Part shown: positions 6,204 through 55,045 of the stretch, in pieces
Position numbering within the stretch: position 1 is the first letter of the stretch
Layout of the letters: every line of letters begins with the position of its first letter
The notes under the pieces: generated by a model
Databases searched by the model: none
What the model saw: only the letters and a program-made list of their open reading frames with translations
What the model was told of the DNA's origin: nothing
Translations under genes and position numbers: made by a program
NCBI RefSeq assembly: GCF_014642835.1
Contig: NZ_BMJA01000002.1
Span: forward strand, 1,054,867-1,118,866
From: Dyella nitratireducens
GTDB taxonomy: Bacteria; Pseudomonadota; Gammaproteobacteria; Xanthomonadales; Rhodanobacteraceae
Length of the DNA: 64,000 nt
Direction of reading: 5' to 3'

Positions 6204-6256
6204 TGTCGAACAAATGAGGAACGTGTTCTCGCTATAGTCTTCAATCTCGCCTTATC

Positions 6257-6513
6257 GTCATTCCGGCCTTCGCCCAGTGCTGTCCGGGGAAGTTTCGTAG
6301 CACCTCACCGTCATTCCGGCGAAGGCCGGAATCCATGCTTCGTACTTGCCATGGATTCCGGCCTTCGCCGGAATGACGGTAAGGCAAGATTGAAGGCTAT
6401 GGTGAACACAAGTTCCTCGCTACATTCCTTCGCAAAAAGCGCCTATAGAACTGCAATTTTCTGAGCTTCGACAAAATCTTCCCCGGACAGCAATGGGCCT
6501 TCGCCGGAATGAC
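6257..6513 (-). repeat. Compound palindromic repeat, 'empty' copy of the GIY-YIG element
   Basis: Read on the minus strand the order is: arm, about 145-bp flank, arm, short loop, inverted arm, right flank with TACGAAACTTCCCCGGACAG. The core inverted repeat is 6310-6377, each arm itself a hairpin (ATTCCGGC-gaa-GGCCGGAAT). This order and the flank sequences match 39784-40332 throughout, except that there the loop holds a complete GIY-YIG nuclease gene. A further half-copy follows at 6514-6552. The region 6204-6576 holds no gene. Confidence 0.85.
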
Positions 6514-6576
6514 GTTAAGGTATTACGAAGCTCCCCCGGACAGCAGTGGGCGAACGAAGCAAAAGAGAGGTCAGCG

Positions 6577-8304: not shown

Positions 8305-8424
8305 CGGGAGGGTTGGCTCGATGAACAGCATGAAGACATCGACACAAAACGTTGGGCGGCTCTGGGGAGGGTTGCATCCATGCTTCGAATTCAATGCCTG
8401 CAGACATCTGCTGCAGGGCGAGTC

Positions 8425-8541
8425 GTCATTCCGGCGAACGCCGGAATCCAGTTCAAAATAACGTGCGCAGCACACGACATAAAGGTTTTGTGTGCTTCGC
8501 ATGGCGTATTTCAACTGGATTCCGGCGTTCGCCGGAATGAC
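8425..8541. repeat. Palindromic repeat, long-loop subfamily
   Basis: Arms GTCATTCCGGCGAACGCCGGAATCC and the inverted copy flank a loop of about 65 nt containing GTGCGCAGCACAC and TTGTGTGCTTCGCA. The same loop occurs at 11951-12068 and 27026-27142. The gap 8305-8738 holds only this element and the leader of the TonB receptor gene; no gene is seen. Confidence 0.85.
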
Positions 8542-8738
8542 AACGCGCGCTGAAACCGTGTCGACGCAGATCACGCGCTCGAAAAATAAGTAGTACGCGC
8601 AATACGCATTCAGCTGGGGAAGCACGAAGAGGGAGCGGTCGTGGCACGCAGTGCCATGGTCGGCATAACAACGCCACGCCACACAACAGCCGTCAATTGG
8701 GCATACGCGTTGAAGACATCAACCAAGAGGTAAGGCTC

Positions 8739-11939: not shown

Positions 11940-11950
11940 TTCTCTTTGCC

Positions 11951-12068
11951 GTCATCCCTGCGAAAGCCGGGATCCAGTTCAAATACGTCGTGCGCAGCAC
12001 ACAAAACCCATTATGTAGTGTGCTGCGCACATCATTTTTTACTGGATTCCGGCCTTCGCCGGAATGAC
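11951..12068. repeat. Palindromic repeat, long-loop subfamily
   Basis: It begins 11 nt after the stop codon of the TonB receptor. The left arm is diverged (GTCATCCCTGCGAAAGCCGG), the right arm typical. The loop contains GTGCGCAGCACAC and its inverted partner GTGTGCTGCGCAC, so it can itself form a strong hairpin and may act as a transcription barrier between the receptor and the permease gene. Confidence 0.85.
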
Positions 12069-12144
12069 GGTGAGGTGGTTTTGAAAATCAATGCTAGCCA
12101 TTCGGCGGCTTATCCCAACCGCATCCAACAACACCAAGGCTGAC

Positions 12145-13533: not shown

Positions 13534-13613
13534 CGCCATGCGAATTCTGGCCAAATCTGAGTGGCGCTCATTTGGGCTCCCTTGGACACGAGCAGTTAGG
13601 AGCTCGCTCCGTC

Positions 13614-13681
13614 GTCATTCCGGCGAAGGCCGGAATCCATGCTTCGTACTTGCCATGGATTCCGGCCTTCGCCGGAATGAC
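13614..13681. repeat. Palindromic repeat, short-loop form
   Basis: A perfect pair of GTCATTCCGGCGAAGGCCGG arms with the short loop CATGCTTCGTACTTGCCATGG, the same loop as at 6310-6377. It lies between the permease and the GH2 gene. Spurious reading frames through it encode the recurrent peptide MDSGLRRNDG. Confidence 0.9.
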
Positions 13682-13771
13682 GGCAAGGTACCCAAAGACG
13701 TTTCCGCTAGGCGGATAGCTACCCATTCCATTGGAGAAAAGAGCTCAAGCAAGCACCATTCGGCCAAACGC

Positions 13772-26926: not shown

Positions 26927-27025
26927 GACTTGCAGGCCGGTGTTTTCGGTTATTTAGGAGTAGAGCGGGAATAGGCGCGATGCCCCGAACTTAAAGGCGT
27001 CTCAATCGCCAGAAACTTCCCACCC

Positions 27026-27142
27026 GTCATTCCGGCGAACGCCGGAATCCAGTCAAAAATGGCGTGCGCAGCACACGATATAAAGGGTTTGTGTGCTTCG
27101 CACGACGTATTCAAACTGGATTCCGGCCTCCGCCGGAATGAC
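27026..27142. repeat. Palindromic repeat, long-loop subfamily
   Basis: Arms GTCATTCCGGCGAACGCCGG and the inverted copy with the loop GTGCGCAGCACAC...TTGTGTGCTTCGCAC, nearly identical to 8425-8541. It marks the boundary between the glycan genes and the accessory region. The gap 26927-27295 holds no gene. Confidence 0.88.
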
Positions 27143-27295
27143 GAGTGCAGGATTTCCGGCAGCTGAAAAATCCGAAGCTCCGAGCGTTGCCCAGAGCCCC
27201 GGCATAGTAATGCGCAAAAGGTCCCGACATAGCCAAACCAGAAATAAGCACAAATTTCGGCTACTGTAGGAGCAGGGCAGGGACAGGGGACCCGT

Positions 27296-39783: not shown

Positions 39784-40332
39784 GTCATTCCGGCGAAAGC
39801 CCACTGCTGTCCGTGGAAAATTTTGCCGAGCTCAGAAAACTGTCCTTCTATGGGCGGTTTTTGCAAAGGAATGCGGCGAGGGATTTGTTCTCAACATCGT
39901 CTTCAATCTTGCCTTATCGTCATTCCGGCGAAGGCCGGAATCCATGTAGAGTCTGGCCATGGACCGGCGATTACCTTGCACCTACATACTTGCCAGCCGC
40001 CGAAGACGCACGTTGTACGTTGGCGTTACCAGCAACCTGATCCAACGCATATGGCAGCATAAAAACGACGTCACAGTCGGCTTTACAAACCGATATGACG
40101 TCCATCTGCTGGTCTGGTTTGAACGTCATGAAACGATGGAATCCGCCATTCTTCGAGAAAAAACGATCAAGGGCTGGAAACGAGACTGGAAAGTCCGGCT
40201 GATCGAAGAGGAGAATCCTCATTGGATCGACTTGTACCCCGCATTGATATAGATGGATTCCGGCCTTCGCCGGAATGACGGTGAGGTACTACGAAACTTC
40301 CCCGGACAGCAGTGGGCCTTCGCTGGAATGAA
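39784..40332 (+). mobile_element. Repeat element carrying a GIY-YIG nuclease gene ('filled' copy)
   Basis: Order: arm (39784), about 145-bp flank, arm (39919-39945), GIY-YIG gene (39959-40252), inverted arm (40253-40279), right flank ending GGAATGAAGG near 40332. The stop codon TAG abuts the right arm. Both flanks and both arms match the minus strand of 6257-6513 in order, where a loop of about 22 nt replaces the gene. The element therefore looks like the complete parent of the widespread short-loop palindromes. Terminal direct repeats from insertion could not be defined. Confidence 0.75.
39959..40252 (+). CDS. GIY-YIG nuclease family protein
   Basis: 97 residues, a single compact domain. 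T-Y-I-L-A-S followed by L-Y-V-G-V-T-S-N-L is the GIY/YIG pair, R-I-W-Q-H supplies the conserved Arg and His, and E in H-E-T-M-E-S-A-I-L-R-E is the metal-binding glutamate. GWKRDWKVRLIEEENPHWID is the usual ending of the UPF0213/YhbQ-like branch. It would nick or cut DNA with Mg2+. It lies inside the palindromic repeat, its start 14 nt after the left arm and its stop touching the right arm, which points to a role in the repeat's spread. Confidence 0.88.
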   Translation: MDRRLPCTYILASRRRRTLYVGVTSNLIQRIWQHKNDVTVGFTNRYDVHLLVWFERHETMESAILREKTIKGWKRDWKVRLIEEENPHWIDLYPALI

Positions 40333-54735: not shown

Positions 54736-55045
54736 GTAGGTTGGGGTGAAAACCCCAACATCGTGGCGTATGGGTGCGTGGCAATGTTGGGGTTTGCACC
54801 CTGAGATATCCCCACGTTTTTTGCGTTGTCCAAGCGAAAAAGTTGGAGTTCAGGTCACTGTTGTTTCAGAGCGAACCGTCATTCCGGCGAAGGCCGGAAT
54901 CCATCGCCAGTGCGAAGCATGGATTCCGGCCTTCGCCGGAATGACGACTGGCTTCGAAACAAACTTCATGCAAACCCAGGACTTCTCCGGCATAACGGGC
55001 AAAAAACGTGGGGATATCTCAGGGTTTGCACCCCAACCTACGAGT
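54736..55045. repeat. GTTGGGGT-type repeats around a GTCATTCC palindrome
   Basis: GTAGGTTGGGGTGAAAACCC (54736) and GGGTTTGCACCCTGAGATAT followed by CCCCACG (54795 on) are mirrored by GTGGGGATATCTCAGGGTTT followed by GCACCCCAACCTACG at 55010-55045. In the middle lies a short-loop GTCATTCC copy (54878-54945), and a half-copy is at 54703-54732. The region 54580-55050 holds no gene. Confidence 0.65.
54878..54945. repeat. Palindromic repeat, short-loop form
   Basis: Typical GTCATTCCGGCGAAGGCCGG arms with the loop CATCGCCAGTGCGAAGCATGG; the left flank TGTTTCAGAGCGAACC is shared with 18971-18987. Confidence 0.88.

What the first reader, a model, noticed from the sequence alone, without database searches (positions are those of the whole stretch)
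39784..40332. GIY-YIG nuclease gene sits inside the palindromic repeat; a collinear copy at 6257-6513 is the 'empty' form
Seen: the minus strand of 6257-6513 and the plus strand of 39784-40332 share, in the same order, an outer arm, about 145 bp of flank (TTTTTGC..AAGGAATG, CTTCAATCTTGCCTTA), an inner arm, an inverted inner arm and a right flank (TACGAAACTTCCCCGGACAG). They differ in that a complete 97-codon GIY-YIG gene occupies the loop in one, and about 22 nt (CATGGCAAGTACGAAGCATG) in the other. Known: REP-type palindromes can be moved by RAYT transposases, and MITEs are deletion derivatives of autonomous elements. Inference: a GIY-YIG nuclease could be the mobilising enzyme of this repeat family, with the short-loop palindromes as its non-autonomous derivatives. 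This may be a transposition or retention system not described before.
Basis: partly seen in the sequence, partly recalled or inferred. Interest (0 to 1): 0.85.

Follow-up and report, generated by a model that had tools for sequence, protein, structure and literature searches.

The report
Nuclease gene nested in genomic hairpins
A small DNA-cutting enzyme gene sits between two copies of a short hairpin repeat that is scattered hundreds of times through this bacterium, and most relatives of this enzyme examined in other bacteria also sit next to such hairpins, so the two look like partners in one selfish or genome-shaping element.

Summary
A 97-codon GIY-YIG gene (39959-40252) lies between inverted hairpin repeats (39918-39941, 40257-40280). 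Locus 6257-6513 is a collinear gene-free relative, 212 of 245 aligned bases identical. It is not an empty site but one of 24 distinct loci lacking an intact gene among 30 fetched matches of a composite repeat. The hairpin fits the published CGTC-REP superfamily, reported to lack a dedicated transposase (PMC3733652).

The link is general: strict REPs lie within 300 bp of 77 of 80 named relatives and 52 of 89 phylum-wide relatives, against 0 of 20 other GIY-YIG genes. REP type tracks the nuclease, down to the paralog (29 for, 7 against). The REP-gene-REP unit is present or absent at orthologous sites in Sphingobium and Azospirillum.

Best reading: an Ssn-type nuclease (literature recalled, not held) and its cognate REP form a two-part unit gained and lost together. 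Nuclease-driven REP spread is plausible, not shown.

The parts
39918..39941 (+). left CGTC-REP (tag CGTC, 8-bp stem ATTCCGGC, loop GAAG; CCA tail 39942-39944)
   Evidence: 446 matches to its 23-nt core in the genome with up to 2 mismatches, 0 in the reversed control
39959..40252 (+). GIY-YIG nuclease gene, 97 aa; Y9, Y20, G22, R30, E67 and N86 are invariant among the aligned relatives
   Evidence: Pfam PF01541 E 1.1e-13; alignments A1, A2; AlphaFold2 model pLDDT 94.2; dN/dS 0.20-0.45 between own copies
40257..40280 (-). right CGTC-REP, inverted, identical to the left one (27/27 with tail)
39785..39917 (+). left flank of the composite repeat (half-REP, CCACTGCTGTCC arm, about 100 bp conserved flank)
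   Evidence: gene-free copies elsewhere at 78-92% identity
40281..40331 (+). right flank of the composite repeat (GGTGAGGTACTACGAAACTTCCCCGGACAGCAGTGG, then half-REP)
   Evidence: gene-free copies elsewhere at 86-97% identity
6257..6513 (-). gene-free collinear member of the same composite repeat, with 22-nt loop
   Evidence: 212/245 aligned bases identical
6309..6332 (+). CGTC-REP of the gene-free dimer
6355..6378 (-). partner CGTC-REP of the gene-free dimer
13613..13682 (.). short CGTC-REP dimer (same family, no gene); further dimers at 8424-8542, 11950-12069, 27025-27143 and 54877-54946

Best explanation
The locus is one autonomous-looking copy of a two-part element: a small GIY-YIG nuclease (very probably of the Ssn family) enclosed by, and specific for, a CGTC-type REP hairpin. 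Shown by sequence: the gene lies between inverted REPs; the association holds across Pseudomonadota and in loci titled as several other phyla; REP variant and nuclease co-vary; the REP-gene-REP unit is present in some records and absent in others at the same site; gene-bearing copies decay into internally deleted copies; the gene is under purifying selection. Inferred: the nuclease recognises and cuts its REP when the hairpin is single-stranded (lagging strand or incoming transforming DNA), and repair or copying of the cut REPs spreads or removes REPs and, rarely, the gene-bearing unit. Solo symmetric hairpins (CGTC-stem-loop-stem-GACG) may be the scar of collapse between two REPs. The hundreds of gene-free REPs would then be the non-autonomous majority, as REPINs are to RAYTs, but served by an unrelated enzyme.
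For: Own genus: 13 of 16 genomes, the own one included, carry a homologue; 22 of 25 hits, fragments included, have a strict REP within 200 bp, mostly in three recurring layouts with different stem variants. Phylum: strict REP within 300 bp of 52 of 89 high-scoring homologues (33 on both sides; 8.5-fold over the farther flank) against 0 of 20 low-scoring GIY-YIG genes, several from the same genomes. Named genomes: 77 of 80 (76 with a C-starting tail, 47 on both sides; 21-fold density), including loci titled Planctomycetes, Dehalococcoidia, Nitrospinae and Elusimicrobia, most of them MAG contigs. Plasmid collection: 12 of 14 loci read, of 33 matching records, have a strict REP within 300 bp; Planktothrix and Spirosoma have only other palindromes. 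Genome level: at least 10 REPs in 31 of 57 genomes with a high-scoring homologue against 20 of 192 without (p 2e-11, not corrected for phylogeny). Specificity: Mantel r 0.58, 0 of 2000 permutations reach it; paralogs in 17 genomes carry the REP type of their own closest foreign homologue in 29 cases, not in 7, ties 2. Gain/loss: Sphingobium fnrL site, of 12 listed records matching both flanking genes 7 have the unit and 5 do not, two of these with a solo hairpin exactly there; Azospirillum sufB-sufC, unit in A. lipoferum 4B and absent from the 3 relatives read (95-97% identical). Decay copies: L060/L065/L074 (one locus), L067, L075, L085. No CGTC-REP within 1.5 kb of the 3 Y1_Tnp hits of the genome.
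Against: 37 of 89 high-scoring phylum loci have no strict REP within 300 bp (by eye about eight have similar palindromes on both sides; the rest do not). 20 of 192 genomes without a counted homologue have 10 or more REPs, up to 174. 18 of 57 genomes with one have fewer than 5 pattern matches. In the paralog test 7 cases went the other way. Insertion ends could not be fixed to the base and no target duplication was seen. The common short loop is not gene-derived. A lone GIY-YIG domain has no joining activity that I know of, so copying would rely on host repair. No activity was measured here.
Confidence: 0.62

Rival explanations
1. Domesticated pair: the nuclease and its REPs serve the host (for instance limiting or shaping natural transformation, as I recall for Ssn/NTS in Neisseria). 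REPs spread by other means, and the nuclease gene merely hitch-hikes inside them.
For: Purifying selection on the gene (dN/dS 0.03-0.45 in the 9 of 12 chosen pairs where it could be computed). The N. gonorrhoeae homologue (58.7% identical) sits among 11 dRS3-like REPs in 3.3 kb. 18 of 57 nuclease genomes have few REPs.
Against: Patchy presence at orthologous sites, diverged paralogs in one genome each with its own REP type, and an insertion inside the suf operon look like a selfish unit. The two roles are not exclusive.
Confidence: 0.25
2. Classical homing endonuclease: the gene inserts into a solo REP, which is its cut site, and spreads by repair copying into gene-free REPs.
For: In Sphingobium TomTYG64 a solo symmetric hairpin occupies exactly the place of the REP-gene-REP unit. 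GIY-YIG is a homing-nuclease fold (established knowledge).
Against: The window copy does not interrupt its target: both flanking REPs are intact (27/27), so an inserted copy would not be protected. Solo hairpins are only 21 sites in this genome and may be deletion scars between 8-bp direct repeats.
Confidence: 0.12
3. CGTC-REPs are moved by a RAYT or other transposase, and the GIY-YIG genes are chance passengers.
For: RAYTs are proposed to move GTAG-REPs (abstract of PMC3733652; PMC3116915 and PMC2817692, listing with start of abstract). The genome has 3 Y1_Tnp hits, 2 over the cut-off.
Against: None of the 3 has a CGTC-REP within 1.5 kb. Di Nocera et al. report no transposase flanked by CGTC-REPs apart from a few fortuitous associations. 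A passenger would not be expected to show paralog-specific REP matching.
Confidence: 0.05

Closest known systems
CGTC-REP superfamily, family CGTC-1 (Di Nocera et al. 2013, PMC3733652; abstract, section 6 and passages read)
   Same: CGTC tag, 8-bp stem beginning AT, 4-nt loop, CCA tail, mostly head-to-head dimers; dRS3 of Neisseria is placed here by that paper.
   Different: That paper reports no dedicated enzyme, and 'GIY' does not occur in its text; here a GIY-YIG nuclease is the frequent neighbour.
Ssn family of site-specific single-strand nucleases with repeated target NTS in Neisseria (recalled: Chenal et al. 2025, Nature Communications; not held)
   Same: Small single-domain GIY-YIG protein; a Neisseria gonorrhoeae ORF 58.7% identical to the window protein lies among 11 dRS3-like repeats.
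   Different: The recalled work concerns ssDNA cutting and transformation.
REPtron / REPIN with RAYT tyrosine transposase (PMC3116915, PMC2817692; listing with start of abstract only)
   Same: Autonomous gene flanked by palindromic REPs; a large gene-free population of inverted REP pairs.
   Different: The enzyme is GIY-YIG, not HUH/Y1; the tag is CGTC, not GTAG.
UPF0213-type GIY-YIG proteins, UvrC N-domain, Slx1
   Same: Fold: Foldseek top hits Slx1 7cq2 (E 9e-3, probability 1.00), UPF0213 1zg2, UvrC 1yd6, none at E 0.001 or better; profile search 1zg2 4.5e-4 and 1yd6 0.011, below WD-40 repeat proteins that have no single significant stretch.
   Different: Low-scoring GIY-YIG genes have no REPs within 300 bp (0 of 20); no NCBIfam model reaches its cut-off with the window protein.

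Membership tests
CGTC-REP (repeat) | CGTC tag, 8-9 bp stem starting AT, loop 4-5, CCA tail | tested here: met
   39918-39944: CGTC ATTCCGGC GAAG GCCGGAAT CCA against the definition in section 6 of PMC3733652
CGTC-REP (repeat) | high copy number, mostly head-to-head dimers | tested here: met
   446 core matches in the genome; 383 by the tailed pattern; dimers in the window
CGTC-REP (repeat) | not flanking tyrosine transposase genes | tested here: met
   0 of 3 Y1_Tnp loci of this genome with a CGTC-REP in 1.5 kb
Ssn nuclease (recalled) | homology to the Neisseria protein | tested here: inconclusive
   58.7% and 57.6% identity to ORFs in two N. gonorrhoeae records, but that this ORF is Ssn rests on recall
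Ssn nuclease (recalled) | site-specific cleavage of single-stranded DNA | not testable with these tools
   needs biochemistry
RAYT/REPtron | HUH/Y1 tyrosine transposase gene between GTAG-REPs | tested here: not met
   only PF01541 matches the gene in Pfam; the tag is CGTC
Homing endonuclease gene | insertion interrupts the recognition site | tested here: not met
   both flanking REPs intact in the window copy, taking the REP as the recognition site
IS with MITE derivatives | internally deleted derivatives keeping both ends | tested here: met
   L065/L074, L067, L075, L085 keep both gene ends between REPs
IS with MITE derivatives | defined ends and target-site duplication | tested here: inconclusive
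   spacers too diverged at the Sphingobium and Azospirillum sites

The most novel reading that the evidence does not exclude
CGTC-REPs, including dRS3 of Neisseria, are the non-autonomous part of a widespread transposon-like system whose enzyme is a GIY-YIG nuclease of about 97 residues: a second, RAYT-independent solution to REP mobility. Cutting at the two hairpins moves or collapses the unit, leaving symmetric solo hairpins as scars, and each nuclease lineage carries its own REP specificity.
Probability: 0.4. Interest if true: 0.82.

Novelty: new variant of a known kind. Interest (0 to 1): 0.64.

Why it matters
The 2013 survey left open which enzyme, if any, serves CGTC-REPs. A frequent, paralog-specific partner makes that question directly testable. 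If the nuclease drives REP turnover, a one-domain enzyme of under 100 residues shapes hundreds of sites per genome, and the natural nuclease/REP pairs are a ready collection of matched site-specific nucleases and targets.

Tried and rejected
Segmental duplication of the two window loci: rejected, 24 distinct loci without an intact gene among 30 fetched matches. REP-less composite element in the genome: searched with one exact gapped pattern, only the solo-hairpin copy found. Empty site for 39784 in the genus: the upstream gene is not followed by the element in 7 of 7 relatives read; one of them (L093) has a REP dimer of another variant 79 bp downstream. The downstream gene is not syntenic, so the ends stay undefined. 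The common short loop as a gene remnant: rejected for two of three loops; the window's own loop scored 10, reached by 12 of 500 shuffles, weak after three tests. Phage carriers: no match in 50,697 records at E 1e-5. RAYT link: none in this genome. The first paralog test pooled loci under shared labels such as 'Gamma' and was replaced. REP dimer polymorphism in Sphingobium 49-kb segments: at one site the dimer is missing in 2 of 5, but flanks are too diverged for ends. Literature: no held paper joins GIY-YIG with dRS3; one holds both 'GIY-YIG' and 'extragenic palindrom' (PMC9465073, listing only); further searches. RepRanger paper PMC12306157: word search only, no GIY or nuclease.

Rows dropped: of 106 listed rows of at least 60 bits, 89 were analysed; 4 left out are from the own genome and 13 are fragments, lie at contig ends or were not fetched. 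Of 44 listed lower rows, 20 served as control. Matches beyond the listing were not seen. The 80 named loci are the best of 574; one of the 77 positives, L251, looks spurious. In one search, G126 (a 61-bit fragment) was counted as 'without'. Of 33 plasmid records 14 were read, chosen to avoid near-duplicates; H6-H8 and H26 among others were not read.

Full report
Observation. The window holds a complete 97-codon GIY-YIG gene (39959-40252). Its start codon lies 17 bp after the stem of a left REP hairpin, and its stop codon 4 bp before an inverted right REP.

What the repeat is. In this 5.68-Mb genome the REP core occurs 225 + 221 times with up to two mismatches, with no reversed-pattern match. 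Its parts (CGTC tag, stem ATTCCGGC, four-base loop, CCA tail, inverted dimers) meet the definition of CGTC-1 REPs in PMC3733652, where such REPs are said to lack a dedicated transposase and where dRS3 of Neisseria is placed in the same family. Around the window gene the REP pair sits inside a longer composite repeat. The 548-bp query has 172 matches in the genome; of 30 fetched, 3 carry the gene and, after merging rows of one locus, 24 distinct loci lack an intact gene and keep one or both flanks. At the centre four states were seen: whole gene, gene with a large internal deletion (L060/L065/L074 as one locus and, inverted, L067, L075, L085), a short loop of about 22 nt, and a collapsed symmetric solo hairpin (L066).

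Is the link general? In the genus, 13 of 16 genomes, the own one included, have a homologue. Of 25 hits (fragments included) 22 have a strict REP within 200 bp, mostly in three recurring layouts that go with three kinds of stem. Two own-genome copies that fail the strict test, L049 and L056, have arms carrying a 28-nt insert; L048 has its REP at 318 bp. Over 249 Pseudomonadota genomes, 91 had any match. Of 89 high-scoring loci analysed (of 106 listed), 52 have a strict REP within 300 bp and 33 on both sides; density is 8.5 times that of the farther flank. Of 20 low-scoring GIY-YIG genes (of 44 listed) none has one. Of the 37 high-scoring loci without a strict REP, about eight show similar palindromes on both sides by eye (L160, L164, L166, L172, L173, L184, L197, L203); the rest do not. 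Of the 80 best named loci (of 574), 77 have a strict REP (76 with a C-starting tail, 47 on both sides), with 21-fold density. Record titles include Planctomycetes, Dehalococcoidia, Nitrospinae, Elusimicrobia, Bipolaricaulota and Deltaproteobacteria; most of these are MAG contigs, one is a complete Planctomycetes chromosome (L273). In the plasmid collection 33 records match. Of 14 loci read, 12 have a strict REP within 300 bp: Neisseria gonorrhoeae, Sphingobium, Rhizobiaceae, Azospirillum, Novosphingobium, Aeromonas and Photobacterium. Planktothrix and Spirosoma have only other palindromes. No phage record matches.

Genome-level test. The pattern CGTCATNCYN{10,16}RGNATCC was counted in 249 genomes drawn as. 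Median 11 copies with a high-scoring homologue (57 genomes), 1 without (192); at least 10 copies in 31 of 57 against 20 of 192. The test is not corrected for phylogeny. Exceptions run both ways: REP-rich genomes without a counted nuclease (up to 174 copies) and 18 nuclease genomes with fewer than 5 matches.

Specificity. Protein distance and flanking-REP distance correlate (138 loci, r 0.58, 0 of 2000 permutations). Shared ancestry alone could do that, so paralogs within one genome were compared: in 17 genomes, a gene's REP resembles the REP of its closest foreign homologue more than its sister paralogs' REPs do in 29 cases, less in 7, ties 2. This suggests cognate pairs.

Gain and loss. (1) Window site: the upstream gene's orthologues in 7 relatives are not followed by the element. 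(2) Sphingobium plasmids, fnrL/response-regulator spacer: of 12 listed records that match both genes, 7 carry REP-gene-REP (4 read, 3 identical to one of these by listing) and 5 do not (all read). TomTYG64 has a perfect solo hairpin and TomTYG74 a degenerate one at that very place; TomTYG72, TomTYG65 and S. herbicidovorans have neither, TomTYG65 holding a different palindrome. The solo form could be a deletion between the 8-bp ACCCCGGG repeats or a pre-insertion target; the two most distant relatives lack the unit, which favours gain followed by collapse (inference). (3) Azospirillum: in A. lipoferum 4B a REP-dimer/gene/REP-dimer unit of about 510 bp separates sufB from sufC; the three relatives read (95-97% identical) have an 87-129 bp spacer without strict REP or gene, and eight further Azospirillum records show two pieces at a similarly short spacing (listing only). 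(4) Shinella: three records match the whole stretch with the unit, five others (H167-H171) match in two pieces at shorter spacing (listing only).

The protein. Motif residues are invariant in alignments of 20 and 37 relatives. The AlphaFold2 model (pLDDT 94.2, pTM 0.86) is closest by Foldseek to Slx1, UPF0213 and the UvrC GIY-YIG domain, with no hit at E 0.001 or better. In the profile search of solved structures WD-40 repeat proteins rank above 1zg2 and 1yd6, without any single significant stretch, which I take as an artefact. dN/dS is 0.20-0.45 between the three own copies and 0.03-0.17 in six other pairs; three more pairs were saturated.

Mechanism. I commit to a two-part element in which the nuclease acts on its own REP hairpin, most likely as single-stranded DNA, and the REP-bounded unit is gained and lost as a whole. 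The pairing is shown by sequence statistics only. Cutting is inferred from the GIY-YIG fold and from what I recall of the Ssn family (not held in the library). Nuclease-driven copying is the least certain step. A host role in transformation is the main rival and is compatible.

Novelty. The repeat family is published and a nuclease/repeat pair in Neisseria is, by recall, published. What I did not find in the held library is the identification of this nuclease as the partner of CGTC-REPs at large, the paralog-specific matching, or the presence/absence and decay of REP-gene-REP units; the recalled Ssn paper may hold part of it. Hence: new variant of a known kind.

Noticed in passing
L004/L062 (own genome C1:1943330-1943914): Both REP arms around this gene copy carry the same 28-nt insertion, and a sister copy (L063) has it in the left arm only: the two arms may evolve in concert, as if copied through a fold-back.
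   Followed up: partly
own genome, 21 sites such as C1:520569-520596 and C2:700422-700449: Symmetric solo hairpins CGTC-stem-loop-stem-GACG, 13 of them exact, possibly scars of collapsed REP dimers.
   Followed up: partly
window 6216-6554 and 39785-40331: The composite repeat has its own arms (CCACTGCTGTCCGGGG) fused to half-REPs, so an outer palindrome seems to have replaced the REP tail; its origin is unexplained.
   Followed up: no
L354, Planktothrix agardhii plasmid p1: A homologous GIY-YIG gene lies between an MmeI-type restriction gene and DISARM drmA.
   Followed up: no
L322, Sphingobium TomTYG73 plasmid: The gene copy has a 1-bp gap relative to its sisters and no CDS is annotated there: the unit may be decaying in place.
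   Followed up: no
plasmid collection hits H2, H3, H5-H9: Records of 2-5 Mb filed as plasmids look like chromosomes (for example N. gonorrhoeae, 2.17 Mb).
   Followed up: no
L166 and L172 (unnamed Pseudomonadota genomes): Two homologues are flanked on both sides by a different palindrome (ACCCGGAATCTCGAGATTCCGGGT type): a possible further REP class paired with this nuclease.
   Followed up: no
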